Shown one piece after another: positions 1,259-22,409 of a stretch of 27,712 nt of DNA; position 1 is the first letter of the stretch, and each line of letters starts with the position of its first letter. Below the pieces are notes generated by a model, which did no database searches, was not told the DNA's origin, and saw nothing but the letters and a program-made list of their open reading frames with translations. Both the position numbers and the translations under genes were made by a program. Source of the stretch: Streptomyces sp. NRRL S-350 (lineage in GTDB: Bacteria; Actinomycetota; Actinomycetes; Streptomycetales; Streptomycetaceae); the NCBI RefSeq assembly GCF_000719705.1, contig NZ_JOHO01000073.1, forward strand, positions 1 through 27,712. Direction: 5' to 3'.

Positions 1259-2488
1259 TCAGCTGGCGGCTGGCCCTCCCGCGCTCCCAGGGTGCTCTGG
1301 TAGTTGCAGCCCGGCGGGTGGATGCAGAAAGGCCTCATTGTCGAACACGGGCGGCACCGCCCACGACATCACGAGCCTCAGTTTCACTGTGCCGCCGGTG
1401 AACTCGGCACGGTGGAAGGTCACGAGGCTGCCGGCGAATTTGGCGCTCTTGAAGTCCACGAGGCCGCCCGCAAACTTGGCATCTCCGAAGGTCACCATGC
1501 CGCCGGTGAACTCGGTGCCGCGGAACTTCACGATGCCGCCGGTGAACTTGGTGCCGCCGAAGTTCACGATGCCGCCGGTGAACTTGGTGCCGCGGAAGCG
1601 CATCATGCCGCCCGCGAGCTCGGCGGAGTCGAAGAGCACCAGGCTGCCGGTGAACTTGGCGAAGTCGAAGAGCATCGTGCCATCGGCGAGCTTGCTACGG
1701 AAGAAGGTCACGGTGCCGCCAGTGAACTCGGCGCGGTGGAAGGTCACGGTGCCGCCGGTGAACTCGGCGTTGTCGAAGGTCACGGTGCCGCCGGTGAACT
1801 TGGCGTTGTCGAAGGTCACGGTGCCGCCGGTGAACTCGGCGTTGTCGAAGCTCACGGTGCCGCCTGCGAACTCGGCACCGTTGAAACTCACGTTGCCGGT
1901 GAATCGGGTTCGACTGAAGTCTCCGCCGTCGAAAACGGTGCCGGTGAAGTCGTAGTCGTGTCCGTCCCAGGATGTTGCGGACCGGGGTTGTTGGTGGTCT
2001 CGGATGACTCTGATGACTGTGTGGCGGATTTCGCGGTTGGCTTGCCAGTCCAGATGCTGTTCGGCTGGTGCGTCGTCTTCGGGTGGTGGCGAGTAGGGCA
2101 TGCGGAGGTAGGCGCAGAGGACGTCAAGGCAGGTTTGTCGGCGTTCGGCCCAGTCGTCGGCGAGTCCGGCCATGGCGTGGACGCCAGCGAGGCGGCAGGC
2201 TGCCTCTCGATGGCCGAGGAGTTCGGCTGCAGTGTTGAAGCGCTCGTTGAGTAGACGGGTTCGTTCGTGTTCCAGGGTGTTTTCGGTGTTCTGGCGGAGG
2301 GCTCGTGAGGAGCGCCAGGCGCCGGCGAATGCTCCGGCACCGCCGAACAAGGCACCACCGAGGCCCACGAGGAGTACAGCCCACAGCGGGCTGCCCGGGC
2401 TGGTGCTCTGACTTGGTGGTTGTGAGGGTGAGGCACTTGGGCTGGGGACGAGGCTGGCGTAGTCGAGGAGGCTGGCCAGTGTCGTCAT
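1259..2488 (-). CDS. Membrane-anchored pentapeptide-like repeat protein
   Basis: The protein has 409 residues. A Pro/Ser-rich N-terminus of about 35 residues leads into one Gly/Ala-rich transmembrane segment (about 36-57). A charged region follows (about 60-160, with RTRLLNERFNTAAELLGH), of the kind that precedes repeats in many Streptomyces pentapeptide-repeat proteins. From about residue 185 to 390 there are roughly 14 tandem repeats of the form F-T-G-G-T-V-T-F-D-N-A-E. The period is 12 residues (36 bp in DNA), not 5, although each unit contains the A-x-F/L-x-G core typical of pentapeptide proteins. A right-handed beta-solenoid on the membrane is likely (inference). The ATG at 2488 has only a weak ribosome binding site. 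No partner gene is adjacent. Family identity is good; function is unknown. Confidence 0.8.
   Translation of the reverse strand: MTTLASLLDYASLVPSPSASPSQPPSQSTSPGSPLWAVLLVGLGGALFGGAGAFAGAWRSSRALRQNTENTLEHERTRLLNERFNTAAELLGHREAACRLAGVHAMAGLADDWAERRQTCLDVLCAYLRMPYSPPPEDDAPAEQHLDWQANREIRHTVIRVIRDHQQPRSATSWDGHDYDFTGTVFDGGDFSRTRFTGNVSFNGAEFAGGTVSFDNAEFTGGTVTFDNAKFTGGTVTFDNAEFTGGTVTFHRAEFTGGTVTFFRSKLADGTMLFDFAKFTGSLVLFDSAELAGGMMRFRGTKFTGGIVNFGGTKFTGGIVKFRGTEFTGGMVTFGDAKFAGGLVDFKSAKFAGSLVTFHRAEFTGGTVKLRLVMSWAVPPVFDNEAFLHPPAGLQLPEHPGSAGGPAAS
1383..1915 (-). repeat. 36-bp tandem repeat array inside the solenoid gene
   Basis: About 14 imperfect copies of a 36-bp unit encode the 12-residue repeats. The best-conserved units (about 1733-1875) are nearly identical and share the plus-strand phrase gtgccgccggtgaactcggc. 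Units toward the 5' end on the plus strand (the C-terminus of the protein) are more diverged. The near-identical central block suggests recent unit duplication. Confidence 0.8.
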
Positions 2489-5005: not shown

Positions 5006-5563
5006 TCAGTCGACGGCCTGATCGCCTCTCCCGAGGCCCGCGGGCCTCGGGGTTGGGATGCCCAGGTCAACCGGTCGGGGTACCTCGGCCAAGCGCACTG
5101 CTTCTGCGTGCTTCTGCCGTAGCAGTGTGAGCGTCAGCTCGATGCCTTCGATCTCGCCGAGCCAGCCTTCGGCCTTGGCGCGGGCACGGCGGGCGAGGAG
5201 GTCGGTCTCGATCTCTTCCAGGCGCGTGATCATCTGCGGGTTCACACGCAGGACGGGACAGCGGATGCACGCGTGTTCATGGCGGCAGCTGCTCGCGTAT
5301 GGGCGGCCGCAGGTGCCGAGCTCGACCTTGCGAGTGTCGAAGTGTTCCTCGAACTCGCTCCACTCGGTGCTGGTGGGCGACCGGTATTCGCCCTCGGGAC
5401 GCAGTCTGCGGCGGTTGTCGAGGAAGTGCTGGTAGTGCCGTACGACGTCGTCGTTGAACACCGCGACGTAGCCAGCGGTGGTCTGGAGGCTGAGGTGCCC
5501 GAGCAGTGCCGCCCCGATGTGGATGGGCACGCCGTTGTTGACCAGGTCGGTGGCGAACAAATG
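5006..5563 (-). pseudogene. C-terminal remnant of a tyrosine recombinase
   Basis: Recognisable integrase sequence begins abruptly at LFATDLVNNG (about 5560). It continues through the IGAALLGHLSLQTTAGYVAVF box, which holds the catalytic-type GH and Tyr, and a long helical tail with a Cys cluster (GTCGRPYASSCRHEHACIRC). This tail is typical of large actinobacterial integrases. The N-terminal domain, the first catalytic Arg and the His-x-x-Arg box are missing: the expected PHDFRR before LFATD is replaced by unrelated residues. The gene is therefore a 3' remnant of roughly 185 codons, not a functional recombinase. It is unrelated in position to the three-recombinase element at 9-18 kb but belongs to the same broad class. 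Confidence 0.8.
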
Positions 5564-5725
5564 GCTTGTGTCCGCAGAGGCCGTGTGCGGATCAGCCCGT
5601 GTTGCTTTTGGGCTGGCGGGACTCGGAGGGGGCATTCGCCACGCTTCTTCCGGGCCGTGTTGCATTGCGGCCACCCAGATGTGAGGCAGGCCACACTTCT
5701 GGGTGACGCCCCTGAACCGTGCTGA

Positions 5726-8136: not shown

Positions 8137-8727
8137 ATGCCGGGCGATGCCGAGTACGCGCCCCGCGAGCTGATGTCTCTGCCCGGCCCCTCCCGGGACA
8201 TCCGGCGCTGGAGGCTGGTGGAGATCCGGCGGGGCGGCCGGTGGCGGCCGGCGATGCTCACAGTGTGGCGGCGCCCGCCCGGTTCCGCCGTGTGGGTGGT
8301 CCACGTGCGCTGGGCGCCGGATGAGGGCGACGCCGAGGCCTGGGGCTGGTTCGTCTTCTCGGAGACGGCCATCCGGCCACTGCCCGAGCCGGACGACCCG
8401 GCCCCCGCCCGGGCCCCGTTCCACGGCGTCTGGCGGGACGCGATCACAGTGCCGCGCGAACTCACGGGCACCCCCGATCCCGATGGGGCGGACCGGTGCT
8501 GGCGCCTGGCCTGGCTGCGGATCGAGGGCACCTGGAGTTCGGCTCTGGTCACCGCCCGCCGGCGCCCGGGCCCGGACGTGCCCTGGATCGCCGACGTGCG
8601 CTGGGGCGAGGATCGCCAGCGCGCCTGGGCGCTCTACGACCCGGCCGCGGTGCGCGTCGTGCCCCGGGAAGAAGACCGCGCCGCCGTGTCCCCGGAGCCG
8701 CCGGCCGGGAAGGGAGAGGGCGCGTGA
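8137..8727 (+). CDS. Hypothetical protein with tandem duplicated domain
   Basis: The protein has 196 residues from ATG 8137; a TTG at 8056 is another candidate start. It contains two copies of a roughly 60-residue unit. Each has R-x-W-R-L, then G-x-W-x-x-A, then a T-x-x-R-R segment, then V-R-W, and ends in A-[IV]-R-x-x-P. Copy 1 covers about residues 20-85 (RRWRLVEIRRGGRWRPAML) and copy 2 about 118-178 (CWRLAWLRIEGTWSSALV). The Trp-rich units are probably small beta domains. Its stop overlaps the GTG of the next, imuA'-like gene (GTGA), so the two are translationally coupled. That links it to the DNA-damage mutagenesis context, though its function is unknown. Confidence 0.7.
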   Translation: MPGDAEYAPRELMSLPGPSRDIRRWRLVEIRRGGRWRPAMLTVWRRPPGSAVWVVHVRWAPDEGDAEAWGWFVFSETAIRPLPEPDDPAPARAPFHGVWRDAITVPRELTGTPDPDGADRCWRLAWLRIEGTWSSALVTARRRPGPDVPWIADVRWGEDRQRAWALYDPAAVRVVPREEDRAAVSPEPPAGKGEGA

Positions 8728-9035
8728 GTGTCGCCGCTGTCTCGGGCACCTCTCAGGCCGCAGCGCTGCCCGCTCCCGATGCGGACACGCAACGCCGGCT
8801 GAGGCTGGCCGGTCTCCTGGAGGAAACCAGTCCGGCCGCCCGACGCGCCCGGGTCGAATCCGCGACCCGGCCGGTCCTGCCCGCCCTGGAGCCGCTGCTG
8901 CCCGACGGCCGCCTACCCAAGGGCGTCGTCGTCGAGGTCCTGGACGCCGGCCTGCTCCTCGCGACCGCGGCGGGACCGGCCACCACGTCCGACACCCTCT
9001 GGACGGCGATCATCGGCTGGCCCGATGCAGGTTAG
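8724..9035 (+). pseudogene. imuA'-like (RecA-fold) gene, 5' half
   Basis: GTG at 8724 overlaps the preceding stop by 4 nt and has a good AGGGAGAGG ribosome binding site. The 103 codons give a typical N-terminus of the actinobacterial RecA-like ImuA' protein. This includes AGLLEETSPAARRAR, then LLPDGRLPKGVVVEVLDAG, which is the degenerate Walker-A region, and TLWTAIIGWPD. Homology ends at the element's left end, and a stop (TAG, 9033) is contributed by the element. The remaining half resumes at about 18109 in a compatible frame. In intact loci this protein works with ImuB and DnaE2 in damage-induced mutagenesis. Confidence 0.75.
9029..9034 (+). repeat. Left element end, AGGTTA
   Basis: AGGTTA at the left junction is matched by TAACCT (18105-18110) at the right junction, giving a 6-bp terminal inversion. 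The left sequence continues GGTCCACTGTTCA and the right side reads GAACTGTTCA just before TAACCT. The octamer ACTGTTCA is thus present near both ends in the same orientation (9040-9047 and 18097-18104). Confidence 0.55.
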
Positions 9036-9051
9036 GTCCACTGTTCACCGG

Positions 9052-9126
9052 TGTCTCAGGCCGCCGTAAGGGTGGTCTTGGGCGGGGTTCGTTGGCCGCT
9101 ATGGTGCCCGCGTTGTGGATGTCTCA
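9052..9126 (+). repeat. Left subterminal TGTCTCA repeats
   Basis: TGTCTCA occurs at 9052-9058 and again at 9120-9126, between the left end and the first recombinase start. The first lies in GGTGTCTCAG, a 10-mer that is repeated in inverted orientation at the right end (18009-18018). These are candidate recombinase-binding sites. Confidence 0.6.
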
Positions 9127-9139
9127 CGGAGCGTGGCCG

Positions 9140-10597
9140 ATGGACTACTTCTTCACATCAACCGACGTGGTGCGCCGGTTTTACGAGCCGGTGCCGGGTG
9201 TTGATCTCGACGCGGTGGCGTACGTGACCCGTCCCGGGGCGTTGCCGGAGGGAACCCCGTTCTTCGTGGACGAGGGGATGCGGCCAGCGGAGCCGTTGTC
9301 GTCGTTCTTCCGCTCGGAGGCGAAGACGCTGGCCGCGTCGTCGCTGAGGGACTACACCTACGATCTGCTGGACGTGGCCGACTTCCTGGGCGGGCTGGAC
9401 CCGGCGGTGGATCTGCTGTCGGCGTGCGAGGACGACCTGGTCGCCTACCGGGACGACCGCACCCGCCATCAGGAGGCGCCGCTGAGTCCAGCGTCGTGGC
9501 GCCGCCGCCGGACGGCGATCGGCAACCTCTACTCCTGGGCGGTGGAGGAGGGACTGCTGGAGCGGCGTCCCTATCACCGGCGCCGGGGCGGGCGGGACGT
9601 GCTGGCGTGGGGTGCGGTGTCGCAGTTGGACGTGCGGCACCTGACGTTCGAGCAGTGGCGGTTCCTGAAGGACGTCGGGCTGCGGGGGCTGCTGCCCGAC
9701 GGGGGGCTCGACCCGTCCTTCCGGGGCCGTAACCCGTTGCGTGATTCGTGCGCGGCGGAGCTGGCGATCAGCACGGGAATGCGCCTGCGCGAGTTCAGCA
9801 GCCTGCTGGACATCGAGGTCGGCCGGCCGAGGCGGGACGCCGGAGCACGGCTGGTGGACCTGGAGGCGGCCGCCAAGTACGGGCTGCCGCGGACAGTGGA
9901 GATCCAGGACGCCACGCTTCGCGAGATCGACCTGTACCGACGCACCGAGCGCGCCCAGGCGGTGCGGCGCGCGGCGCCAGCGCTGGCGCGGCACCGGGCG
10001 GAGCTGTTCGTCGTCGACGACATCGACCTTCGCCACATGCGCCTGAGCGGGGTGCTGCACGGGCGGCGCCGCTCGTTCGCGGTGCGGCTGATGAGCGCGC
10101 CGCTACGGCGGATCACGGTGATGGAGGGCACACGAGGGCTGGAGCCGATGGCCCTATTCGTCGGCCGCCATGGGCGGATGATCGGCCGCCAGCGCTGGGA
10201 CCAGGTCTTCGACACCGCACAGGACCGCTGCGAGGCGGTGATCGCCGAGTGGGGGCTGGAGCTGGAGATGCCGTCCAACATCCGCATCCACGACCTGCGC
10301 CACACCTTTGCGGTCTTCATGCTGGAACTGCTCACCCAGCTCGTCCTGGAGCAGGCCGCCGAGCAGCTGCGCTCCGGCGGACGGGCGCCGGTGCTCCTGG
10401 GCGAGCACATGAACCGCAACGCCTTCCTGCGCGTGCAGCTCCTGCTCGGTCACCGCCGTCCGGAGTCCACGATGCGGTACCTGCGCTACATCCGCCGCGC
10501 CAGCGAGCTGGTCGCCCGCGCACTTCGTGAGTGGAACGACCAGGACACCACGTTCGCGGACTACGCCGCGCGCGAGGCCAGCCGGGCGGTGGCCTGA
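9140..10597 (+). CDS. Tyrosine recombinase 1 of the element (485 aa)
   Basis: This is the first of three overlapping recombinase genes. An N-terminal SAM-like core-binding domain lies at about residues 40-150 (SLRDYTYDLLDVADFL, then RRRRTAIGNLYSWAVEEG). The catalytic domain has Arg215 (STGMRLREF), His384-x-x-Arg387 (HDLRHTF), His438 (LLGH) and Tyr447 (TMRYLRY), so all expected active-site residues can be seen. ATG at 9140 (MDYFFTS) is chosen because CGGAG lies 9 nt upstream; ATGs at 9101 and 9119 are in frame but poorer. The stop overlaps the next gene's ATG (TGATG). It probably catalyses strand exchange during excision and insertion. It corresponds in position to Tn554 TnpA but is longer. 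Confidence 0.85.
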   Translation: MDYFFTSTDVVRRFYEPVPGVDLDAVAYVTRPGALPEGTPFFVDEGMRPAEPLSSFFRSEAKTLAASSLRDYTYDLLDVADFLGGLDPAVDLLSACEDDLVAYRDDRTRHQEAPLSPASWRRRRTAIGNLYSWAVEEGLLERRPYHRRRGGRDVLAWGAVSQLDVRHLTFEQWRFLKDVGLRGLLPDGGLDPSFRGRNPLRDSCAAELAISTGMRLREFSSLLDIEVGRPRRDAGARLVDLEAAAKYGLPRTVEIQDATLREIDLYRRTERAQAVRRAAPALARHRAELFVVDDIDLRHMRLSGVLHGRRRSFAVRLMSAPLRRITVMEGTRGLEPMALFVGRHGRMIGRQRWDQVFDTAQDRCEAVIAEWGLELEMPSNIRIHDLRHTFAVFMLELLTQLVLEQAAEQLRSGGRAPVLLGEHMNRNAFLRVQLLLGHRRPESTMRYLRYIRRASELVARALREWNDQDTTFADYAAREASRAVA

Positions 10598-12519
10598 TGC
10601 CGCGTCGCGGTGAGCGCCTTCGCCGGCCGCCGGCCGGTACCACCGGCTGCCAGGAGCGGGTCACGGCGATCGGGGTGCGGATCAGGACCGAGTTCGGCAA
10701 GGGCGAGCGCGAGCGCCAGGTCCGGATCGACCCGGCCGCGTTCGCCTGCCCCCTGCTGGCCGCCCAGCTCGCGGACGCCTGGCTCGACTACGCGAAGACG
10801 TACGCGCTGGTCGCCAGCTACGACCACCGCACCGCCGTGGCCAGCTTCTGCGACTTCGCCGGCCCCTACCTCGCCTCGCTCGGCCAGGATCCGGCCGCGG
10901 TGGCTCTGGAGAGCACCGACGTGGACCTGGCCGAGGCCGTCTATGCGTGGGAGCGGCAGTTGCCGGGCCGCTATCCGCCGTCGTCCAATCGCCCCTACCA
11001 CCTGGCCTGTGCCCTGCTCAACGTGGTCAACCTCGCTGCCTCCCGCAACCCGCGAGTCTCGGATCGGCTGCGCGAGCGGGTCCGCGGTGTGAGCGTGCTG
11101 CGTAAGCGCGCCGACCAGGTGCTGGACGAGTTCTCCAACGCCGAGCGCCTGGCCATGCGCACCGCGGCCATGGACGACATCCGCGCGCTGGAGAAACGGC
11201 TGGCCGCGGGCCGGGAGCTCCTCTCGGCCGGCCACGACCCCCACGAGGCCGGCTGGGACGCGACGGCGAACCTACTGTGGGCGGCGCGCCACGGCCTGCT
11301 CAGCGTGAAGGCCCTCGTCGACCACTTGCCGGGCCGCGTTCACCGCTGGCCCGACGAGCTGCGCGAGCTCCTGACTGAGACCTCGGGCGGACGCCCACCC
11401 GGACGACGGCGCCTCGCCCTGGCCGCGGCCCGCATGCTCTACCCCCGCGAGATCGACCTCCACCCCTTCCGTGTCTTGCTCCTGCTGGCCATGACCGACT
11501 GCACCCCCGAGGAACTGCACCGCCTGCACCTGGACGATGTGGAGTTCAGTGCCGACGGCGTCCGGGTCGTCCAACGCAAGGCGCGCGCCCGCCGCATCCG
11601 CGCCGACTTCCACCCCGCCGGTACCGTCGGCGGCGAGTCTGTGCCGACGGCGGTCTTCGACGGTGCCGGGCAGTGGGACGTGCCGGGGCTGATGCGCCGT
11701 CTGGTGGAAGTCAACGCTCTCACGCGCGAGGCGTTCGGCGCGCCGTTCCTGTTCACCGCAGTCGAGGTGGACCAGAAGGGAAGCCTGCGGGCGGGGCTGG
11801 CCTCGTTCGACACCGACGGGCGCAGGTTCTCCGACTGGCTGCACGCCCGCAGCCTCCAGGTGAGCGTCCCGTACGATGTGCGGCGGCTGCGTAAGACCGC
11901 CAAAACCGCGAAAGCCGCCGTCCTCGGCGGGACGCTGTCGGACCTGGCGAGCGACGACCACCACGTGCGGGTGTTCGCCGGGCATTACGCCCACGGCACG
12001 ACCGCCCACGTGCTCGCGGCCCGAGCGGTCAACGCGGCCCAGCAGAAGGTGTTCGACCGCCTCGGCGCCGGCCCGGTGCTGGTCGCCGAGCAGGCCGAGC
12101 CGCTGCTGGGCGAGCCGCAGGTCGCTGAGGCGCTGGGGGTGAGCGAGCGGGTGGGCCGGGAGCTGCGCGACGGCGAGCTGGACATGGGGCTCACCAACTG
12201 CCGGGAGCCGGAGAACTCGCCGTTCACCGGCCCGGGAAGGCCCTGTCACGTGGCGCCGGCGATGTGCCTGGTGTGCCCGAACGCGGTGGTTTTCACCTCC
12301 CAGCTGCCCCGCCTGCTGCTGTTCGCCGACCACGTGGAGCGCCTGCGCGAGCGTCTGGACCCGCCGATGTGGCAGCGGCACTGGGCTGCCAAGGCCCGGG
12401 TGCTGGCCGAGCTGTTCGAGGAGTGCGCGCACCTGCTGCCCGCCGCCCGCGAGCAGATCGCCGCCGGCACCGTGGACCTTGATCTTCCGCTGGGGATGCG
12501 AACGGAGTACGACCGATGA
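10597..12519 (+). CDS. Tyrosine-recombinase-like protein 2 (640 aa), degenerate active site
   Basis: This is the middle protein of the operon, starting at ATG 10597 within TGATG. The C-terminal half has the recombinase pattern, but key residues differ. At the TGxRxxEL box it reads TDCTPEEL (Thr303 in place of Arg). At the HxLR box it reads YDVRRLR (Tyr426 in place of His). After GH (GHYAHGTTAHV, His463) the nucleophile position is Val472. A Cys cluster follows (C535, C550, C557, C560), similar to the zinc-binding tails of large actinobacterial integrases. By my alignment it is probably catalytically inactive and acts as a structural or DNA-binding partner (inference). It parallels Tn554 TnpB in place and length. 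It ends in ATGA, overlapping the third gene. Confidence 0.8.
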   Translation: MPRRGERLRRPPAGTTGCQERVTAIGVRIRTEFGKGERERQVRIDPAAFACPLLAAQLADAWLDYAKTYALVASYDHRTAVASFCDFAGPYLASLGQDPAAVALESTDVDLAEAVYAWERQLPGRYPPSSNRPYHLACALLNVVNLAASRNPRVSDRLRERVRGVSVLRKRADQVLDEFSNAERLAMRTAAMDDIRALEKRLAAGRELLSAGHDPHEAGWDATANLLWAARHGLLSVKALVDHLPGRVHRWPDELRELLTETSGGRPPGRRRLALAAARMLYPREIDLHPFRVLLLLAMTDCTPEELHRLHLDDVEFSADGVRVVQRKARARRIRADFHPAGTVGGESVPTAVFDGAGQWDVPGLMRRLVEVNALTREAFGAPFLFTAVEVDQKGSLRAGLASFDTDGRRFSDWLHARSLQVSVPYDVRRLRKTAKTAKAAVLGGTLSDLASDDHHVRVFAGHYAHGTTAHVLAARAVNAAQQKVFDRLGAGPVLVAEQAEPLLGEPQVAEALGVSERVGRELRDGELDMGLTNCREPENSPFTGPGRPCHVAPAMCLVCPNAVVFTSQLPRLLLFADHVERLRERLDPPMWQRHWAAKARVLAELFEECAHLLPAAREQIAAGTVDLDLPLGMRTEYDR

Positions 12520-14903
12520 CCCAGCACGCCCCCGCCCACACCAGGCTGGTGTCCCGGTTCTTCGCGGACGACGAGCCCGTCTACGCCTCCATGCCCGGCC
12601 GGCTGATGGATGGCTTGGACATGGTGTTCGGCCGCACCGATGCGTGGCCGGCCGACTGCCTTCCGAAGCCCGCGAACCTGGTCCGGGCCCGCTGGAAGTG
12701 CGTCCTGCCCACCGATGCGGTGTGGAACCTGACGGCGCGGGAGCTGGCCTTCGCGATGCTCAACCCCACCCACACGGCACTACGGGAGGCGGGGCTGTTC
12801 CTGCGCATCGAGCAGTGGTCACCGCGGACGGTGTTCGCCACGTGCGAGAAGCTCCGCTACCTCGTCCGCTGGGCGAGTACCCGAAACCTGCCGGGTGACC
12901 TCGGGGCCTGGCAGCAGAGCGACTGGCAGGATTTCATCGACGAACGCGTGGTCCAGGTGAGGCCCGCGACGGTGCGCCAGTACGTAGAGGTCGCCAAGCG
13001 CCTGGCCCAGCTCGCGCCCGTCCTCACCTTCGCCCAGGGCCTTCAGGACCCGTGGCCCGGGATGACGCTCGACCAGGTCGCCGCGTTCTCCAAGCCGAAG
13101 GCCCTGTCGACCGACACGATCCCGCCCGCCGTCTGGTGGCCGCTGCTACGGGCCGCCTGGGCCTACATCGACCGGATCGGCCCACAGGTCTTGGACCACC
13201 GAGAAGCGGAGGCCGAACGCATCGCCGCACTCCCGCCTCTGGAGCCGGCCCGCCGGAATCCGGAAGCGACGGACGAACTCCTGGAGCGGTGGCTCGCCGA
13301 CCCGGCCAACCTCGTGCCCGTCCACGCCCGGCCCCACAGCGGGGCCGCGGTCGGCACCCCGGCCTGGGGACCGCTGAGCCTGGCGGTCACCGGCGGAAGG
13401 ACCATCCAGATCTTCACCGAACCTCAATCCGGCTCCCCCCGGGCCCGCTCCCGCAAGGCCAAGGTGCAGGCCGTCGTCGCCCAGGGCCGCACCGTGGTGC
13501 TGCCGGCGCGCAGGATCAGCACCGTCCTCGGCGTGGACTACACCGAGCACAAGGCCCGCGCCGGACAGGCCCAGGCCGAGCACCGCCGGGCCCTCGACGA
13601 GCGGCTGGACGCCTGGCTCGCGAACCGCGGCAACCTGATCCCCGTCCACACCCGCCCCTTCCGCGGCCGCCCGACGGGCGAACCGGTCTGGGCCGTGCTG
13701 GAGACCCTCGTCTACGGCGGCTACAGCGAACGCGCCTTCCGCACCGACGGACCCGCCGCCCTGCAACGCGTAGACAAGGTCCGCACCGTGGCCCAGGACC
13801 CGGCCCGCCGCACCCCGCACCACCACCGCCAGCTCCATGAACTGCGGACGATCCGCGCCGCCTGCTACATCTTCATCACCGCCCTGTCGGCGATGCGCGA
13901 CAGCGAAGTCCAGGAGATCCAGCGCGGAGCCCTTATCCAGCACTACGGCGCGCCCGCGATCGCCTCCACCCAGATCAAGGACCAGCGCGGCCGGCCACGA
14001 CGGCACTGGTGGATCATCGAACCCGTCGCCCGCGCCGTCGCCCTGGCCGAACGCCTCTCCTGGCACGAGACCCACATCTTCGCCGCCCTCCACCCCGGCT
14101 TCGTCCGCCACGACGACGGCCAGGGCTTCCACGCGGGCCAGGACATCGACCACTTCATCGCCGCCGTCAATCGCGACGCCCGGGCCCTCGGCCTCGACCC
14201 CATCCCCGACGCCCTCGTACGCCCGCACATGTTCCGCCGCACCATGGCCGTCATCACCCGGCTCGAACCGGACGGGGAGATCGCCAACGGCCTCCAGCTC
14301 AAGCACGCCTCCCGCCGGGCCCTCGCCAACGCCGTCACCGCCGCCTACGGACAGACCGACAAGCAGTGGGCCAAGGAGTTCAACACCGAACTGGCCACCG
14401 CCGCCGCCGAACGCCTCGTCGCCATGCTCCGCGCCCGCCGTGACGGCCAGCAGGTGGCGATCGGTCCCGGCGCCCACCGCCTCCACACCGGCCTCGACAA
14501 GGTCAATAACCAGCTTGAAGCTGCCGGCACGGTCCTACGGGCCACAGCCGCCGACCAGCGCCTGGAAGTCAGCCTCCTGCGGGAGGAGTTCGCCGACCTG
14601 CACCTCGGCACCATCAATCACTGCCTGTGGAACCAGGCCACCGCCGAGTGCCAGAACGCCCTGCCCGCAGACCGGCGCGGCAACCAGCCCCTGATCGGCG
14701 CCTGCCAGCCCGCCCGATGCCGCAACTCCGTCCTCACGATCAAGCACGCCCCGATCTGGCGCCTCGAAGAGCAGGACCTCACCCAGCGCCTGGCCGGCAA
14801 GCTACCCGCCCCGCGCCGCCGGCTCATCGAGGACCGCCTCGCCGACGTCCGCGCGGTCACCGCCCAGTTCGACCGGCTTGACCACACCGAGGAGAACGTC
14901 TGA
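12516..14903 (+). CDS. Tyrosine recombinase 3 of the element (795 aa)
   Basis: A very large recombinase-like protein whose ATG sits in an ATGA overlap with the preceding gene. An N-terminal core-binding-type region covers about residues 85-175 (ATCEKLRYLVRWASTRN, then RPATVRQYVEVAKRLAQL). A long insertion (about 240-440) is unique to this type and contains an apparent pair of related segments (ERWLADPANLVPVHARP and DAWLANRGNLIPVHTRP). The catalytic domain shows Arg461 (SAMRDSEV), His571-x-x-Arg574 (HMFRRTM), His597 (KHAS) and Tyr611 (TAAYGQ). A C-terminal Cys set (C703, C712, C730, C735) resembles a zinc-binding tail. It is predicted to be active, and its stop overlaps the coiled-coil gene by 1 nt. 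Confidence 0.85.
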   Translation: MTQHAPAHTRLVSRFFADDEPVYASMPGRLMDGLDMVFGRTDAWPADCLPKPANLVRARWKCVLPTDAVWNLTARELAFAMLNPTHTALREAGLFLRIEQWSPRTVFATCEKLRYLVRWASTRNLPGDLGAWQQSDWQDFIDERVVQVRPATVRQYVEVAKRLAQLAPVLTFAQGLQDPWPGMTLDQVAAFSKPKALSTDTIPPAVWWPLLRAAWAYIDRIGPQVLDHREAEAERIAALPPLEPARRNPEATDELLERWLADPANLVPVHARPHSGAAVGTPAWGPLSLAVTGGRTIQIFTEPQSGSPRARSRKAKVQAVVAQGRTVVLPARRISTVLGVDYTEHKARAGQAQAEHRRALDERLDAWLANRGNLIPVHTRPFRGRPTGEPVWAVLETLVYGGYSERAFRTDGPAALQRVDKVRTVAQDPARRTPHHHRQLHELRTIRAACYIFITALSAMRDSEVQEIQRGALIQHYGAPAIASTQIKDQRGRPRRHWWIIEPVARAVALAERLSWHETHIFAALHPGFVRHDDGQGFHAGQDIDHFIAAVNRDARALGLDPIPDALVRPHMFRRTMAVITRLEPDGEIANGLQLKHASRRALANAVTAAYGQTDKQWAKEFNTELATAAAERLVAMLRARRDGQQVAIGPGAHRLHTGLDKVNNQLEAAGTVLRATAADQRLEVSLLREEFADLHLGTINHCLWNQATAECQNALPADRRGNQPLIGACQPARCRNSVLTIKHAPIWRLEEQDLTQRLAGKLPAPRRRLIEDRLADVRAVTAQFDRLDHTEENV

Positions 14904-15307
14904 TGCCCGTCTCGCGCGCCACCGAGGCCAAACTCCGAGCGGCGATGGCCCGGCTGCTGGAGGGCCGGGCCGAGCGCACCAACGGCGCCCTCACCAAGGA
15001 GAACCTCGCCCGCGAGGCTGGCGTCAGCCACGCCACCGTCCACCGCGCCGACACCGTCCTCGCCGACTGGCACGCCCGTGTCGACCGGCCCCTGCTGCGG
15101 ACCCCGGGCGAAATGCGTCGCGACGAGGAGATCACCGAGCTCCGCCGCCAGCTGCGCGAGTCGAAGCAGAACGTCACCCTGCTGCAGAACAAGCTCGACG
15201 CCCTGGCCACGGTGACCGCCAACCTGTACCACGAGAACCAGGCGCTCAGGAACGAACGGGCCCGGCGCACGGGCCGAACGCTCAGCGCCGTCCCGAAACC
15301 CGGCTGA
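14903..15307 (+). CDS. TnpC-like HTH/coiled-coil accessory protein
   Basis: A 134-residue protein ends the recombinase operon, with its ATG at 14903 overlapping the previous TGA. Residues about 31-50 (TKENLAREAGVSHATVHRAD) form a helix-turn-helix. Residues about 70-120 (EEITELRRQLRESKQNVTLL and following) form a coiled coil, and the end is a basic tail. Size, order and architecture match the small accessory protein TnpC of Tn554-type elements, which helps direct insertion and orientation. The assignment is by architecture, not by a search. A diverged relic of this gene's 3' end recurs at 16686-16723. A strong hairpin follows downstream. Confidence 0.75.
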   Translation: MPVSRATEAKLRAAMARLLEGRAERTNGALTKENLAREAGVSHATVHRADTVLADWHARVDRPLLRTPGEMRRDEEITELRRQLRESKQNVTLLQNKLDALATVTANLYHENQALRNERARRTGRTLSAVPKPG

Positions 15308-15392
15308 CCCCTCCCGGAGGGCGGCGGGGCGCTCACCGCCGGCGCGGGCAGCCTCGGCCGCCACAGGTGTCGCGCCGTCGCCTCCACGCCGC

Positions 15393-15428
15393 GGCCGGCT
15401 GGTCCGCGGCTTCGCGGACCAGCCGGCC
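15393..15428. terminator. Strong bidirectional hairpin between operon and cargo
   Basis: GGCCGGCTGGTCCGCG (15393-15408) pairs perfectly with CGCGGACCAGCCGGCC (15413-15428) across a 4-nt GCTT loop. The 16-bp stem lies between the convergent recombinase operon and the hydrolase gene and would terminate both. Confidence 0.8.
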
Positions 15429-15440
15429 GGGCACCGGACG

Positions 15441-16661
15441 CTAGGGGAGCCTTTCGAGGAGCCAGGTACAGAGTTCCTCCGTGACCTTGCCGTGTTCCTG
15501 GTTGCGGGAGGAGAGCTTGAACTCGTGCAGTTCACTGTCGGCGGACGAGGGGTCGATCTCGCCGTACAGGGCGTCGTCGGAGTCGAGGTCCCGGAGGGCG
15601 ACGGCGCTGACCGCCGGGACGAAGCAGTGCGAGCGGGTCGGGTTCTCGACGGCGAGGGCGGGGATCTGGTTGAGCGCGTCGGCGAGGATCCCGAAGCCCT
15701 CCAGGGTGCCGCCGGGGGCGCCGTCGACGGCGGGCAGGCCCGGGGCGTGGGCCTCGTGCCGTTCCTCGGTGACGACCCGCAGCGTGGCGACCAGGGAGTC
15801 GTCGCCCGTCGGCTGGGTGCGCAGGGTGGTGCCGGTGACGGACTCCCCGGTGCCCAGGACGGCGGTCGCACCGGATTCGATGCCGTTGCCGGTGCCCGAG
15901 CCGACGCCGTTGGCGACACCGATGAGGCGGGGCACGCGTGGCCAGTCGCCCACCCCGGCCAGCTTCGCGAGGAAGTCGGCCCGTTGCTTGTCGACTCCGG
16001 GCTTGTCCTGCCAGTGCTCGATGTGGCGCCACAGCAGCTCGCGGGAGGCCGAACTGTTCATCTGCTCCGAGAACCGGGGGTCGAGCGGGGCGATGTAGTG
16101 CGCGAACGCCTGGAGCGAGATGGGGATGTAGGCGCCCCGGTGCGGGCTGTCGTAGGACCAGTACACCGCCGTCTGATGGTCGAAGTCCCTGTCCTCCTTC
16201 TCCAGCTTGGCGAGGGCGTACCGGGTGACCAGACCTCCCATGCTGAAGCCGCCGACCGCCAGCGGGCCGTCGCACCGCGCGACCGTCTCCCTGATCGCCG
16301 CGATCGCGGCCTCCGCGTTCTCCAGGATCGACGCGCTGCGCTCGTCGAAGCCGAGGAGGATGAAGTCCCTGCCGCGCCGGCGCAGTTCGCTGATGAACGG
16401 GTAGTCGCCGAACTCCAGGTGGGTCCAGGAGAACTCCAGGCTGCTGGGCCCGGTGTTGAAGCCGTCCGAGACGATGACGGGGCGGGTCAGGGCGCTGTTG
16501 CCGTCGCCGTAGTAGACCCAGGCGGTGCCGCCGGGCAGGCTCCATTTCTCGTCGGGCGGCGGCGGGAGGCGGGTGGGGGGCTCCTTGGGGCCGGGAGCCA
16601 GGATGATGGGCGGCGCGGCCCGCAGTGCTTCCGCGGCCTGCCGTTCGGTGGGTGCACTCAT
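15441..16661 (-). CDS. Alpha/beta-hydrolase (lipase/esterase-like), cargo
   Basis: The protein has 406 residues, with ATG at 16661 behind GAAAGGGA. It has an alpha/beta-hydrolase fold. The nucleophile elbow is GGFSMGG (Ser140), a candidate acid is Asp171 in SYDSPHRGAYIP, and a candidate histidine is His345 in TRSHCFVPAV. The strand before the elbow (RDFILLGFDERSAS) and the GPLAVGGFSMGGLVTRYAL run resemble PGAP1/DUF676-like lipases. There is no signal peptide, so it is probably cytoplasmic or released otherwise. It is a passenger gene of the mobile element, transcribed toward the recombinase operon and ending at a strong hairpin. The substrate is unknown. A relic of the coiled-coil gene's 3' end lies just upstream of it. 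Confidence 0.8.
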   Translation of the reverse strand: MSAPTERQAAEALRAAPPIILAPGPKEPPTRLPPPPDEKWSLPGGTAWVYYGDGNSALTRPVIVSDGFNTGPSSLEFSWTHLEFGDYPFISELRRRGRDFILLGFDERSASILENAEAAIAAIRETVARCDGPLAVGGFSMGGLVTRYALAKLEKEDRDFDHQTAVYWSYDSPHRGAYIPISLQAFAHYIAPLDPRFSEQMNSSASRELLWRHIEHWQDKPGVDKQRADFLAKLAGVGDWPRVPRLIGVANGVGSGTGNGIESGATAVLGTGESVTGTTLRTQPTGDDSLVATLRVVTEERHEAHAPGLPAVDGAPGGTLEGFGILADALNQIPALAVENPTRSHCFVPAVSAVALRDLDSDDALYGEIDPSSADSELHEFKLSSRNQEHGKVTEELCTWLLERLP

Positions 16662-16685
16662 GTCGGTCCCTTTCAGGAGGCCAAG

Positions 16686-16723
16686 GCGCCGGGCGCTCAC
16701 CGCAGTGCCCAAACCCGGCTGAC
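16686..16723 (+). pseudogene. Relic of a second tnpC-like 3' end
   Basis: These 38 nt match the last codons of the coiled-coil gene (15271-15308) at 31 positions, on the same strand, 1415 nt downstream. The encoded ends are LSAVPKPG-stop and LTAVPKPG-stop. In the last 28 nt there are four mismatches, and three of them are synonymous. The copy therefore diverged as coding sequence before it was broken. Confidence 0.6.
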
Positions 16724-16731
16724 AGCGGCGA

Positions 16732-16766
16732 AGTCCGCCTACGGACCACCCGTCCGGAGGCGGACT
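16732..16766. terminator. Hairpin downstream of the secreted-protein gene
   Basis: AGTCCGCCT (16732-16740) pairs with AGGCGGACT (16758-16766). After one mismatch, CGGAC (16742-16746) pairs with GTCCG (16752-16756) around a 5-nt loop. It sits just past the stop of the minus-strand gene at 16783-17172 and would end its transcript. Confidence 0.7.
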
Positions 16767-16782
16767 CCTTCGTCCCCGCCCT

Positions 16783-17172
16783 CTACAGGACGGCGATGGT
16801 GAACGAGGCGGGAGTGGGGTGACCGTCGTTGACGGGGACGACGGTGATCGCGTCCCGGCGGTTGTCACACGAGCTGGTGGGCCGTCCTGCCGCCTCGACG
16901 CTCGTGGTGCCGACCCCGCCGTTGGCGAGGATCAGGGCGCTGGAGAGGTCGATGCCGGCAGCGGGGTCGACGATGACGCAGTAGACGCCCCGGTGGGTGC
17001 TCTCGAAGCTGTCGATCACGTTCTTTTGCCTCTGCAGCTCACCGTGGAAGTCCACCTCGGCGGCAGCCCTGGCGTTGGGGGCGATGATCTCCGCCGGCGC
17101 GGCGGCGGCCTGGAGGGTGAAGGCGACCGACAGGGCAGCGGATCCTGCGAGCACAACGGCGGTACGGCGCAT
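16783..17172 (-). CDS. Small secreted protein, cargo
   Basis: The 129-residue precursor has a clear Sec signal peptide: MRR, then the hydrophobic run AVVLAGSAALSVAFTLQAAA, with cleavage likely near residue 25. ATG at 17172 is preceded by AAAGGAAC. The mature part has two Cys (YCVIVDP and SSCDNRRD), probably a disulfide, and a C-terminal beta-like run (PASFTIAVL). I do not recognise a family. It is one of three cargo genes on the minus strand of the mobile element, with its own ribosome binding site and hairpin, lying between the hydrolase and beta/gamma-crystallin genes. It should be exported to the cell wall or medium. Confidence 0.75.
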   Translation of the reverse strand: MRRTAVVLAGSAALSVAFTLQAAAAPAEIIAPNARAAAEVDFHGELQRQKNVIDSFESTHRGVYCVIVDPAAGIDLSSALILANGGVGTTSVEAAGRPTSSCDNRRDAITVVPVNDGHPTPASFTIAVL

Positions 17173-17370
17173 GACAGTTCCTTTGCGATCGAGACACAGG
17201 CGTGGCGTGCTGCGTTGCCTGATAGTTCGTTGACAACCATATGTCGCGGGAACGAGCAATCGCCCTATCCGTCGGCGAGGCCATTCGAATGGGTGGTGTC
17301 ACGAGCGCGCGTTGACTGCCTGGTATTTCGATATGCGCTGCACTACGGGGGGATGTTCGCTCTCCAGGAC

Positions 17371-17411
17371 ACCGTCGAGCCCCGCCGCAATCGCCGGCGG
17401 GGCTCGACGGT
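17371..17411. terminator. 17-bp perfect hairpin after the crystallin gene
   Basis: ACCGTCGAGCCCCGCCG (17371-17387) is perfectly complementary to CGGCGGGGCTCGACGGT (17395-17411), with a 7-nt loop. It lies 15 nt past the stop of the beta/gamma-crystallin gene on the minus strand and is a strong terminator. Confidence 0.8.
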
Positions 17412-17426
17412 GAGCGGCCGGATCCC

Positions 17427-17867
17427 CTACAGGGGCTGGTCGATCGTCATGGTGAAGCTCAGGACCATGACCTGCTCGAACTTCGGAGGGAACCGCTGGG
17501 TCAGCTTGAGCAGGGACTTGGCGTCGACGTCCACGTCGTTCTGCTCGATCGTGATCGATCCGCCTGAGCCGTCCTTGTAGGTGTCGCCGACCTTGACGAC
17601 CGCCTCCTTGTCGGGGTTGGAGACGGTCAGGGAGGAGGTGATGTTGTCGAAGTCGTCGCCGACGTCGCCCGTCGCGGTGAGGGTCTTGCTACGGCCGCCG
17701 AACTTGGAGTCCTCGTACAGCGTGACCGTCCACCCCTTCGGGATGGTCACCGAGCTGATGAAGTCGTTGTCATCCAGCGCGCTGGTGTCGTAGGCGCCGG
17801 GCTTCAACGTCTGGCTTTTGCCCTTACAGCCGCGCTCACCGTGAACGATCACGTGGTCGTTGGCCAT
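17427..17867 (-). CDS. Beta/gamma-crystallin-type calcium-binding protein, cargo
   Basis: This 146-residue protein starts at ATG 17867 behind GAGGGG. Residues about 4-82 form one beta/gamma-crystallin domain of two Greek-key motifs, with GW/Y-type turns (VTLYEDSKFGGRSKTL). Both calcium-binding signatures (N/D-N/D-x-x-S/T-S) are present: NDFISS (residues 34-39) and DNITSS (74-79). The remaining 60 residues form a second, unassigned beta-like region ending FTMTIDQPL. There is no signal peptide. Bacterial domains of this type bind calcium and are linked to stress or surface roles. It is the outermost cargo gene, about 240 nt from the right end of the mobile element, with its own terminator. Confidence 0.85.
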   Translation of the reverse strand: MANDHVIVHGERGCKGKSQTLKPGAYDTSALDDNDFISSVTIPKGWTVTLYEDSKFGGRSKTLTATGDVGDDFDNITSSLTVSNPDKEAVVKVGDTYKDGSGGSITIEQNDVDVDAKSLLKLTQRFPPKFEQVMVLSFTMTIDQPL

Positions 17868-18104
17868 GATCCCCTCGACTTTCTTCAGTCGGAACAAAGA
17901 CGGAATTGACCTTAGAGGCCAAGGATTCTCGTGGTGATGGAAACACCTGATCATTCACTCATCCGGGTCTTGGGCGGCCCGGCAGACTCACGAACTTGCA
18001 ACGAAAATCTGAGACACCAGGCGCCACCAATCCAACCCCGCCTCCGCTACCCACGGCGTTTGAGAACTGAGACAGATACACACGTGAGACAGCCGAACTG
18101 TTCA
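17868..18104. other. Right non-coding end of the mobile element
   Basis: This holds the promoter side of the crystallin gene and the right end of the element. It has lower GC than its surroundings (for example gaacaaagacggaattgacc near 17895) and no open gene. Three TGAGACA repeats lie in its last 100 nt. Confidence 0.6.
18010..18091 (-). repeat. Right subterminal TGAGACA repeats
   Basis: TGAGACA occurs at 18010-18016, 18068-18074 and 18085-18091, all in one orientation. It is the reverse complement of the two TGTCTCA copies near the left end. The first is part of CTGAGACACC, matching the left GGTGTCTCAG exactly. The array is a good candidate for recombinase or accessory-protein binding. Confidence 0.6.
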
Positions 18105-18108
18105 TAAC

Positions 18109-18576
18109 CTCGGCCTCGCCGCCGCCCGCGCCTACGGCCTGCCCTGGGAGCGCACCGTCCTGGCCGACGAACCCGGCGACCAGTGGGCCGAAGTGGCCTC
18201 CGTCCTCGCCGACGCCTGCGAGACGATCATTCTGCGTCCCACCAGCCGCCCGGTCCCGCGCCAGCTCGCCCGCCTCGAACAACGCCTGCGCACCACAGGG
18301 ACCACCCTCCTGACCGTCGACGCCTGGCCCGGCACCGCCGAGCTGCGCCTGACCGTCGGCGACTCGTCCTGGCAGGGACTTGGCGACGGCTACGGTGCCC
18401 TGGAGCGTCGGACGGTCACCGCCCGGTGCACCGGCCGGGGCCGCGCCGTCCGCCCGCGCGAGGCGCGCCTGTGGCTGCCCGATGAGAACGGCTGCGTGAG
18501 CACGGCGACGGCCATACCCGCGGAGCGTCTTCCGCAGGAGGACGGGGACCTCGCAGTCGTCGCCGCGCTCGCGTAG
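18109..18576 (+). pseudogene. imuA'-like (RecA-fold) gene, 3' half
   Basis: Coding sequence resumes as LGLAAARAYGLPWERTVLAD, a motif expected right after the PD that ends the 5' half. It continues through GDQWAEVASVLADACETIIL, ELRLTV and VTARCTGRGR..RPREARLWLP to a TAG at 18576. This is about 155 codons and gives roughly 257 residues for the restored protein. The overlapping imuB gene normally found next is absent; unrelated sequence follows. The protein is inactive as it stands because it is split by 9 kb. Confidence 0.75.
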
Positions 18577-18782
18577 CCGCTGACCCGGTCGGTCATGCGC
18601 TCGCGCGGGGATAGCGGACAGGCCCATCACGCGGCCCGGTGGCCGCCTGCGTGCTCGCCCGAGGACATGCAGGCCGCTCAGTCCTCGGCGGCGCGGCAGT
18701 GGGGCTGAGGCCCTGTCACTTCCTGTCCCGGGCTGTCGCTGGGTGTGCGACGATCCGCAGACCGACAGGTTGGAGGACGGCT

Positions 18783-20924: not shown

Positions 20925-22405
20925 TCAGCTTTCCATAGCCGTCCTTCTCGGTTTGGGGCCCTTCTTGTAGTGGGCGGGCCGCACATATGCCTCGCCGGTG
21001 GCCAGGACTCTTCCGACCTCGTGGTGGGCGGCGGGCCGCTGGTTCTTCGAGCCGGGCGGCCGGCCCGGGCCGGAGCGGGTGGGTTTCGGTGCACGCGCTG
21101 GTGAGGGGGCCTTCGTGTGCAGGTTCCTGAACCCGACGCGGGCGGGGGTGAGCTTGTTCGGTTCCGCCGGCTTCTCCCAGGGGTGGCGGAGGTCGGCGAC
21201 GAGCGGGCGGGCGAGGCGGAGCTGGGTGTGGGCGGCGATCACCAGCCAGGTCCAGCGGTCGGCCGCCGCGGAGTCGCGCAGGCGGGGCCGGGTCCAGCCG
21301 AGGGTCTGCTTGAGCAGGCGGAAGGTGTGCTCCAGGTCGAAGCGGCGGAGGAACGCCTGCCAGCAGCGGTCGACCTCGGCCGAAGTGGCGCCGGTGCGCG
21401 ACCACCAGAGCCAGACCGGCCGGTTCACCCCGCCGCTGGGCAGCTTCTCGACGGCCAGCCGGATCACCGTGCCTTCGAGGAGCGGCAGGTCGCCGTCGTG
21501 GTCCAGCCAGGCCGCGCGGCGGGTCAGCCGGGGGTGGAGCCGGTCCCAGGCCCGGGCCTGGGCGGTGCCGTAGTGGCGAGTCGCGGTGGTGGTGACCGCC
21601 TGTTCGGTGCCCCAGGTGTCGGGGTCGCCGAAGACGAACTCGCTGCCGTGCTTGGGCGGCCGGCCGCCAGCCGGGTTCGCGGCGGCGAACTCCGCCCGGC
21701 TTGGGGCCGGGCGGCGCATCACCCGGTCCGAGCGGAGCCGGCCCAGCACCTGCACCGGCAGATCCGCGAGCAGGTGGGCGATGCGCGGGGCGTCGTAGCC
21801 GGCGTCCATCACCACCAGCACCTCCGGATCACCCGCCCGCCACTGCCCCGCGCCGATCAACCGCACTACCACGTTGCGGAGTTGGACGGCAGTGACGGCC
21901 GCGACGTCGGCGCCGGGCTCCAGCCGCGTCGCGTCCAGCACCGCCGTCCAGGAAGTCCGCCCAGTCTCCAGCGCGACCACGAACGAGTACGGCCAGCCCG
22001 GGGATCATCTGGTGCTTGGCGTCGCCGCGGCCGAAGGTGTGGCAGAAGGATCGGTCCGGGCAAGTCTGTGCGTCCGGCCGCAGGAACGGCGAGACGTCCA
22101 CCGCGAGCACCAGGCGGCCGTCGGCGGCCCGCGGCAGCGGCAGGCCGGCCAGCGCGGTCCGCAGCCGCTCGAACGTCTACCCGCCCCCGGTTCAGCGCGG
22201 CGTACGGGGCCCCGTGCCCGCGCCGGTGCTCGGGGGCCAGCGCCAGGCCCACCAGGGTCTTCACCGGCCCGTCGGTGCACAGCAACGCATCGGTCAGCTC
22301 GAACAGCGCGTCGCGCCGCCCGGTCAGGCAGTCGTAGAAGACCCCCCGGAAGCGTGACAGTTCAGCGAACGGCTCGCCCTGCACACCCTGTTCCACCACA
22401 CTCAT
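20925..22405 (-). pseudogene. IS transposase with two frameshifts (DDE type)
   Basis: The N-terminus begins MSVVEQGVQGEPFAELSRF (ATG 22405, GTG 22408 possible) and runs to ALNRGRVDV. There an extra base at about 22172 breaks the frame, as the expected VERLRTALAGLP is in the next frame. The middle part (AVDVSPFLRPDAQTCPDRSF) ends at KHQMIPG, where another extra base in the run at about 21997-22003 shifts the frame again. The rest (VVALETGRTSWTAVLDATRL) is intact to 20925. DDE-type residues are visible: the Asp of VDVSP, the Asp of VVMDAGYDAP and the Glu of FDLEHTFRLLKQ. The family is an IS701/IS4-like Streptomyces transposase (family name uncertain). As read it cannot be made in one piece. Confidence 0.8.
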
Positions 22406-22409
22406 CACA

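What the first reader, a model, noticed from the sequence alone, without database searches (positions are those of the whole stretch)
9031..18108. Nine-kilobase mobile element with three recombinase-like genes and cargo, bounded by a split imuA'-like gene
The sequence shows four overlapping plus-strand genes (485, 640, 795 and 134 aa). Three are tyrosine-recombinase-like and the last is an HTH/coiled-coil protein of TnpC type. Three cargo genes follow on the other strand. The whole block is inserted in one host gene whose halves rejoin in frame. Known relatives are Tn554 (two recombinases plus TnpC) and RIT elements (three smaller recombinases). A combined four-gene module with large recombinases and a defined integration site looks like a distinct, possibly undescribed family of actinobacterial transposon.
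Basis: partly seen in the sequence, partly recalled or inferred. Interest (0 to 1): 0.9.

Follow-up and report, generated by a model that had tools for sequence, protein, structure and literature searches.

The report
Actinobacterial three-recombinase mobile island (GInt-like)
A 9-kilobase mobile DNA island has cut a DNA-repair gene of a soil bacterium in two; it belongs to a known but little-studied kind of element that uses three recombinase-like proteins, and several of its relatives sit inside one conserved motif of a common enzyme family.

Summary
Window 9032-18107 (9,076 bp) is an integrated element that splits an imuA'-type gene; three genomes of the same genus carry that gene uninterrupted. 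Four overlapping genes encode a complete tyrosine recombinase (A), a recombinase-fold protein without the first catalytic Arg (B), a very large complete recombinase with a duplicated domain (C), and a small TnpC/GinD/Srap-like protein (D). The order A-B-C-D is full length in 30 of 52 fetched actinobacterial loci (not all independent), and cargo differs. Relatives share ends: left TTA[G/T]...TGTCTC, right GAGACANNNGAACTGTTC[A/C]TAA. The right-end pattern occurs once in each of 13 of 394 family genomes, its reversed control in none. At least 5 of these 13 right ends lie in Nudix genes, at the GG of the Nudix box. Profiles of all four proteins match, position by position, four-gene operons of proteobacterial GInt type. 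So it is not a wholly new kind but an actinobacterial branch of the GInt/SE class, with its own clade, ends and targets, which my searches of open papers did not find described. Circular form, transfer and current activity are untested.

The parts
8727..9031 (+). left part of the split imuA'-type host gene
   Evidence: NF058630 positions 1-45, below cut-off; aligns with uninterrupted genes in L101-L103
9026..9031 (+). left 6-nt core TGCAGG
   Evidence: 6 nt before the conserved TTA of the left end; uninterrupted allele L058 has TGCCGG here
9032..9058 (+). left end: TTAGG...TGTCTCA
   Evidence: aligned in relatives about 110 bp before gene A; TGTCTCA at 9052
9120..9126 (+). second TGTCTCA box, just before gene A (possible arm site, inferred)
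   Evidence: similar inner box in relatives
9140..10597 (+). gene A, tyrosine recombinase with R, HxxR, H and Y (485 aa)
   Evidence: Pfam, catalytic columns
10597..12519 (+). gene B, recombinase-fold protein without the first catalytic Arg (640 aa)
   Evidence: catalytic columns, Y464 and H455 invariant in 27 rows, fold
12516..14903 (+). gene C, large tyrosine recombinase (795 aa) with an internal duplicated domain
   Evidence: R461, K488, H571, R574, H597, Y611 invariant in 34 rows, fold, internal repeat
14903..15307 (+). gene D, small TnpC/GinD/Srap-like protein with a coiled-coil-like C-terminal part (134 aa)
   Evidence: profile matches to GinD-position proteins and SE Srap
15441..16868 (-). 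cargo: alpha/beta-hydrolase-like protein; the start is probably nearer 16661
   Evidence: sub-threshold Pfam hydrolase matches only; start judged by eye
16783..17259 (-). cargo: small protein, by eye with a signal peptide
   Evidence: ORF; no Pfam match
17427..17954 (-). cargo: beta/gamma-crystallin-like protein
   Evidence: sub-threshold Pfam match E 0.034
18068..18107 (+). right end: TGAGACA (18068) and TGAGACA (18085) followed by GCCGAACTGTTCATAA
   Evidence: a third TGAGACA at 18010
18108..18113 (+). right 6-nt core CCTCGG
   Evidence: uninterrupted allele L059 has CCTCGG here
18114..18576 (+). right part of the split imuA'-type host gene
   Evidence: NF058630 positions 44-153 over cut-off (query from 18106)

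Best explanation
Window 9032-18107 is an integrated site-specific mobile island of the GInt/SE class. Inferred mechanism: A and C are the two DNA-cleaving tyrosine recombinases; B binds DNA or scaffolds the complex but is impaired in cleavage, because the first catalytic Arg is missing; D is a TnpC/GinD/Srap-type accessory factor. The proteins recognise the end motifs (TTA... and ...TAA, with TGTCTCA/TGAGACA boxes as possible arm sites) and exchange strands across a 6-nt core, so that a circular form integrates into a core inside a gene, here imuA'. Shown here: gene content, order and catalytic residues; recurrence with different cargo; conserved ends; 6-nt cores; empty sites in relatives. Inferred: circular intermediate, the roles of A-D, current activity, and whether exit is cut-out or copy-out.
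For: Empty site at DNA level in three same-genus genomes. A-B-C-D full length in 30 of 52 loci, usually with 1/4/1-nt overlaps in the close relatives. Conserved left and right ends; right-end pattern in 13 of 394 family genomes, control 0. Profiles A, B, C and D match the same-position proteins of three GInt-type operons. Catalytic columns and folds. Cargo differs among 9 elements examined, except that L011 and L013 are alike.
Against: No circular form or movement is shown. The published GInt of Pst DSM 4166 was not available for comparison, and PMC5385486 says that GinC lacks the first Arg, while here and in L113-L115 it is the second gene. Of 8 family genomes with C only 6 have the right-end pattern; 7 of the 13 genomes with the pattern have no C match at 1e-100. 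The window's two cores differ, so it has no simple direct repeat. The pattern was built partly from genomes that are among the 13.
Confidence: 0.85

Rival explanations
1. It is a Tn554-type transposon (TnpA, TnpB, TnpC), of the actinobacterial group described in 2012 (PMC3414803), that has gained an extra gene.
For: PMC3414803 (passages) describes actinobacterial elements with one very long (611-828 aa) and one shorter (about 350 aa) recombinase plus TnpC; C is long and D is TnpC-like.
Against: A is 485 aa, and B is present in the fetched loci where the module is whole. Profiles match four-gene proteobacterial operons at every position. The sequences of the 2012 families were not compared here.
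Confidence: 0.08
2. It is a true SE (strand-biased circularizing integrative element) in Actinobacteria, moving by copy-out.
For: Order complete recombinase, altered recombinase, large recombinase, small protein is that of intA-tfp-intB-srap; imperfect inverted ends and 6-nt cores that differ between left and right, as in SEs (PMC10214605, PMC9345347). The D and A profiles score 25.6 and 20.5 bits on Srap and IntA of the pAQU1 SE.
Against: B and C profiles do not detect Tfp or IntB of that SE (-1.0 bits, about -0.5), while they detect the GInt-type proteins. IntB is linked only through proteobacterial third genes. Only one SE was compared.
Confidence: 0.2
3. The island is a fixed remnant that no longer moves.
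For: A single copy of C in the genome apart from one 33% match elsewhere; the host gene is still split; a short weak integrase-like match lies nearby (window 5459-5575).
Against: All four genes are full length, catalytic residues are kept in A and C, and both ends fit the family motifs.
Confidence: 0.2

Closest known systems
[quoted passage not shown] Tn6571 family), PMC5385486, PMC10121019
   Same: Four-gene operon at one end, three recombinase-type proteins plus a small TnpC-like one, variable cargo, insertion at specific gene sites; all four profiles match same-position proteins of GInt-type operons.
   Different: Actinobacterial clade; C enlarged by a duplicated domain; second rather than third gene lacks the first Arg; common target is the Nudix box rather than ssb or an ABC-transporter gene; Actinobacteria not among the phyla named in the parts of the paper that I read.
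SE, strand-biased circularizing integrative element (intA-tfp-intB-srap), PMC10214605, PMC9345347
   Same: Same order of complete, altered, large complete recombinase and small accessory protein; imperfect inverted ends; 6-nt cores.
   Different: B and C have no detectable similarity by profile to Tfp and IntB of the one SE compared; SEs were reported from Gammaproteobacteria only (abstract); strand bias untested here.
Tn554 and the Tn554-like actinobacterial transposons of PMC3414803
   Same: A long and a shorter recombinase plus a TnpC-like protein; site specificity.
   Different: Two recombinases, no counterpart of B (from the passages read; sequences not compared).
RIT elements (ritA, ritB, ritC), PMC3414803
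   Same: Three adjacent overlapping recombinase genes.
   Different: All three RIT families show a possible catalytic motif and no fourth gene is mentioned in the passages read; here B lacks the first Arg and D is present.

Membership tests
GInt | operon of three recombinase-type genes plus a small helix-loop-helix/TnpC-like gene in the order ginA-B-C-D | tested here: met
   profiles match same-position proteins of three GInt-type operons L113-L115; the reference GInt of Pst DSM 4166 itself was not compared
GInt | tripartite layout: operon at one end, cargo, short AT-rich other end | tested here: met
   operon starts about 109 nt from the left end; cargo 2,800 nt including the right end; last 300 nt 55% GC against 70.5% for the element
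GInt | GinA and GinB with catalytic core, GinC without the first Arg (PMC5385486) | tested here: not met
   B, the second gene, lacks the aligned Arg and C keeps it; L113-L115 behave likewise, with an Arg one column earlier in two of these three
GInt | flanking imperfect direct repeats of 10-17 nt | tested here: inconclusive
   6-nt cores identical in 9 of 13 rows with both ends, different in 4 including the window
GInt | excision as a circle, all four genes needed | not testable with these tools
   needs a culture and mutants
SE | gene order intA-tfp-intB-srap with complete recombinases first and third | tested here: met
   catalytic columns
SE | homology to Tfp and Srap, by which SEs were surveyed | tested here: not met
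   D against Srap 25.6 bits, but B against Tfp -1.0 bits; one SE only
SE | imperfect inverted end repeats with 6-nt spacer and one-sided footprint | tested here: inconclusive
   TTA.../...TAA ends with inverted TGTCTC/GAGACA boxes and differing cores in the window; the donor is unknown
SE | circle formation without an empty site, strand bias | not testable with these tools
   needs PCR and sequencing of a culture
Tn554 | two recombinases plus TnpC, no third recombinase-like gene | tested here: not met
   B is present and has the recombinase fold
RIT | three recombinases each with a catalytic motif, no fourth gene | tested here: not met
   B lacks the first Arg; D is present

The most novel reading that the evidence does not exclude
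Actinobacteria host a separate old branch of four-gene recombinase islands with their own end sequences. They home to DNA that encodes a conserved protein motif, the GG of the Nudix box, so that any of a cell's many Nudix genes can serve as landing site. The window's sub-branch has moved on to mutagenesis genes: imuA' here, and a DNA polymerase III alpha-type gene in the closest relative. It moves by copy-out, leaving a one-sided 6-nt footprint.
Probability: 0.3. Interest if true: 0.7.

Novelty: new variant of a known kind. Interest (0 to 1): 0.55.

Why it matters
GInt and SE elements carry resistance, defence and biosynthesis genes in proteobacteria, and how they move is unsettled. A well-delimited actinobacterial branch (members of 7.9 to 15.7 kb with both ends found) in genera related to workable Streptomyces offers small models for testing what a recombinase without its first Arg does in a three-recombinase machine. 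The 22-nt right-end pattern lets annotators find and delimit such islands.

Tried and rejected
Chance or annotation artefact: rejected because of empty sites, conserved ends and co-linear relatives. Whole block native to imuA' loci: rejected; none of the 52 module loci showed an imuA' match on its flanks and the three empty-site loci showed no module. Defence cargo: no PADLOC match for the three cargo proteins. PDB sequence searches with A, B and C found no recombinase; structure comparison did. NCBIfam and PHROG scans gave no family for B; C had none in PHROGs and one match far below cut-off in NCBIfam. pAQU1 was read in four stretches to find its SE. A first left-end pattern picked an inner copy of the motif in some loci and was corrected. 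In one search the frame chosen by length was wrong for the window and, as I judge, for L095 and L096, and L026 stays unassigned; those genes were read by eye or by other calls. L016 was paired there with a doubtful right end; L030, with the same left flank, has a second candidate at 20471 that restores a Nudix reading. For L093 no right end was found in 20 kb. The tree of C has long branches (seIntB, KC, L044); I use it only for the sister pair window + L093 (100/100) and for the window-type group (100/99), whose 14 rows I had chosen beforehand; 27 of 48 rows had no group, and 6 of these lie inside it.
Full report
WHAT IS THERE. The window lies in an 8.78-Mb genome in 253 contigs. Its genus is probably Kitasatospora: genome G053, 'same genus', has a contig of 63,581 bases with an element of the same size and ends as the named record of Kitasatospora sp. 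GP82, whose contig has that length. Four + strand genes A 9140-10597, B 10597-12519, C 12516-14903 and D 14903-15307 overlap by 1, 4 and 1 nt. Minus-strand cargo follows. On either side lie parts of one imuA'-type gene: model positions 1-45 on the left (20.1 bits, below the cut-off) and 44-153 on the right (87.8 bits, above it).

EMPTY SITE. The right part was sought in 70 genomes of the genus (own genome included): 55 of 70 match at 1e-8, three others than the own at 72-78% identity. In these three (L058-L060; longer stretches L101-L103) the gene is uninterrupted. Window 8789-9028 and 18111-18580 map to adjacent bases of L101; the pieces overlap by 1 nt in L102 and lie 3 nt apart in L103. DNA upstream, between about 8050 and 8650, aligns too. 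The own genome has a second match at 54% identity on another contig.

THE MODULE RECURS. One scan of genome contigs with a profile of C gave 45 loci; seven more came from family genomes (L094, an extension, was not counted). By a length rule 30 of these 52 have all four genes full length. The others are cut by contig ends, frameshifted or shortened, fused (L011), or without a D match (L050-L055). Several rows are near-copies or the same genome. Frequency: C at 1e-100 in 2 of 70 genus and 8 of 394 family genomes; the B profile at 1e-30 in 9 of 394 class genomes. Cargo stretches of 9 elements run from 1.6 to 9.4 kb with different ORFs, except that L011 and L013 are alike. In 1 of these 9, L015, the cargo encodes a 200-aa protein 33% identical to the split Nudix gene.

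ENDS AND CORE. Relatives share TTA[G/T]...TGTCTC about 110 bp before gene A. Downstream they share GAGACANNNGAACTGTTC[A/C]TAA. This 22-nt pattern occurs once in each of 13 of 394 family genomes and its reversed control in none. It was built from loci of which some are among the 13, so the count is not independent. Of the 8 family genomes with C 6 have the pattern, G113 and G125 do not; 7 of the 13 have no C match at 1e-100, so they may hold remnants or more distant elements. A second TGAGACA lies 17 nt further in, exact in 10 of 13 and with one mismatch in 3 (both boxes counted by eye). Between end and host lie 6 nt. Of 13 rows with both ends (one element twice, near-copies included, L016 and L026 doubtful) 9 have identical cores and 4 differ. 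The left core ends in GG in 17 of 26 rows. The window has TGCAGG left and CCTCGG right. Uninterrupted imuA' alleles show TGCCGG, CGCCGG and CCTCGG here, so both window cores look like imuA' sequence. A one-sided footprint from an earlier imuA' site would leave that picture, but it is not proof.

TARGETS. Joined flanks of L011, L012, L013, L015 (L100), L025 and L097 read through as Nudix-like proteins split at the GG of the Nudix box. Pfam gives NUDIX for joined L012, L015 and L097, for the hybrid of L016/L030, and for the right parts in G256, G200 and G178, whose match starts at profile position 35. Of the 13 right ends, five are Nudix by Pfam (L121, L126, L127, L128, L129; the first two as joined L015 and L097), a sixth (L124) by eye. 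The others are imuA' (window), a type II/IV secretion ATPase (L123), a GP88-like protein (L125, E 1.8e-10) and four unassigned (L118, L120, L122, L130). The closest relative, L093 (A 79%, C 61% identical), has a DNA polymerase III alpha finger domain on its left flank. Its right end was not found, so that target is half shown.

PROTEINS. One search shows 9 or 10 actinobacterial and 7 other rows per protein. A keeps R, HxxR, H and Y in all 16 rows. B lacks the first Arg in the aligned column in all 16; two of the three GInt-type rows have an Arg one column earlier. B keeps the second Arg and a Tyr in the aligned place in all 16; H455 and Y464 are invariant in 27 actinobacterial rows. C keeps R, K, HxxR, H and Y; they are invariant in 34 rows. 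In L050, the Klebsiella and the two alphaproteobacterial rows the His of HxxR is replaced. The model of B (mean pLDDT 82) has tyrosine recombinases (Cre and variants, XerH, Tn1549 integrase) as its ten best PDB hits, best E 2.8e-4. The model of C (76.5) likewise, but none under 1e-3, best XerA at 4.4e-3. C holds two copies of a domain of about 83 residues, 40% identical; relatives of about 690 aa align over about half of C.

KIN. Profiles of the actinobacterial families (37, 38, 41 and 41 rows) were run on 26 proteins: alphaproteobacterial operons L104 and L106 (no D annotated), a Klebsiella plasmid operon L110, three GInt-type operons L113-L115 and the SE of pAQU1 (L112). A scored 214 to 48 bits on the six A-position proteins, B 137 to 35, C 267 to 53, and D 32 to 17 on its four. 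The best off-position score was 8.3 bits. On the SE only A (20.5) and D (25.6) scored; IntB of the SE reaches C only through proteobacterial third genes. These are few reference operons, picked from BLAST hits, and 'GInt-type' is my label from their layout; the published GInt of Pst DSM 4166 was not available. PMC5385486 says that GinC lacks the first Arg, whereas in L113-L115 it is the second gene; this is unresolved.

LITERATURE. PMC5385486: parts 1-3 of 6 of the text and passages. PMC10214605: passages, outline and abstract, part 1 of section 3, sections 6 and 10. PMC9345347, PMC3414803, PMC8138268, PMC10121019: passages. Five searches of open PMC papers listed no report of GInt- or SE-type elements in Actinobacteria, but three lists were capped (40 of 297, 20 of 54, 20 of 9,355). 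PMC5704250, which holds 'GInts' once, was not opened. Subscription papers and preprints are not covered, so novelty is provisional.

VERDICT. Known in kind, because four-gene tyrosine-recombinase islands are published; apparently new as an actinobacterial branch with defined ends and a motif-like target. Filing it as a GInt is likely but not closed: homology, order and layout are met, repeats are inconclusive, and the stated GinC feature is not met. It works like GInt and SE elements.

Noticed in passing
L015 12789-13391 (minus): The cargo of an element that splits a Nudix gene encodes a 200-aa homologue of that gene (33% identity): possibly a replacement copy. Seen in 1 of 9 elements.
   Followed up: partly
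L104 1800-7200 and L106 1710-7068: Alphaproteobacterial plasmid operons have A, B and C counterparts but no annotated D. Whether D is missing or unannotated was not tested.
   Followed up: no
L113-L115: In these proteobacterial operons the second gene, not the third, lacks the first catalytic Arg in the aligned column, at odds with the statement on GinC in PMC5385486.
   Followed up: partly
window 5006-5674 (minus): ORF with a short weak Phage_integrase match at 5459-5575 (23.4 bits, below cut-off); by eye it resembles the end of a large recombinase, perhaps a remnant of another element.
   Followed up: no
window 20925-22408 (minus): Two overlapping ORFs that by eye look like pieces of a DDE-type insertion-sequence transposase; no family search was made.
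   Followed up: no
window 1259-2488 (minus): ORF of 409 aa whose second half is made of repeated FTGGTVTF-like units, by eye a pentapeptide-like repeat protein.
   Followed up: no
G052, G089, G178, G200, G285, G292, G389: Seven family genomes carry the right-end pattern but no C match at 1e-100: remnants, elements with other recombinases, or distant members.
   Followed up: no
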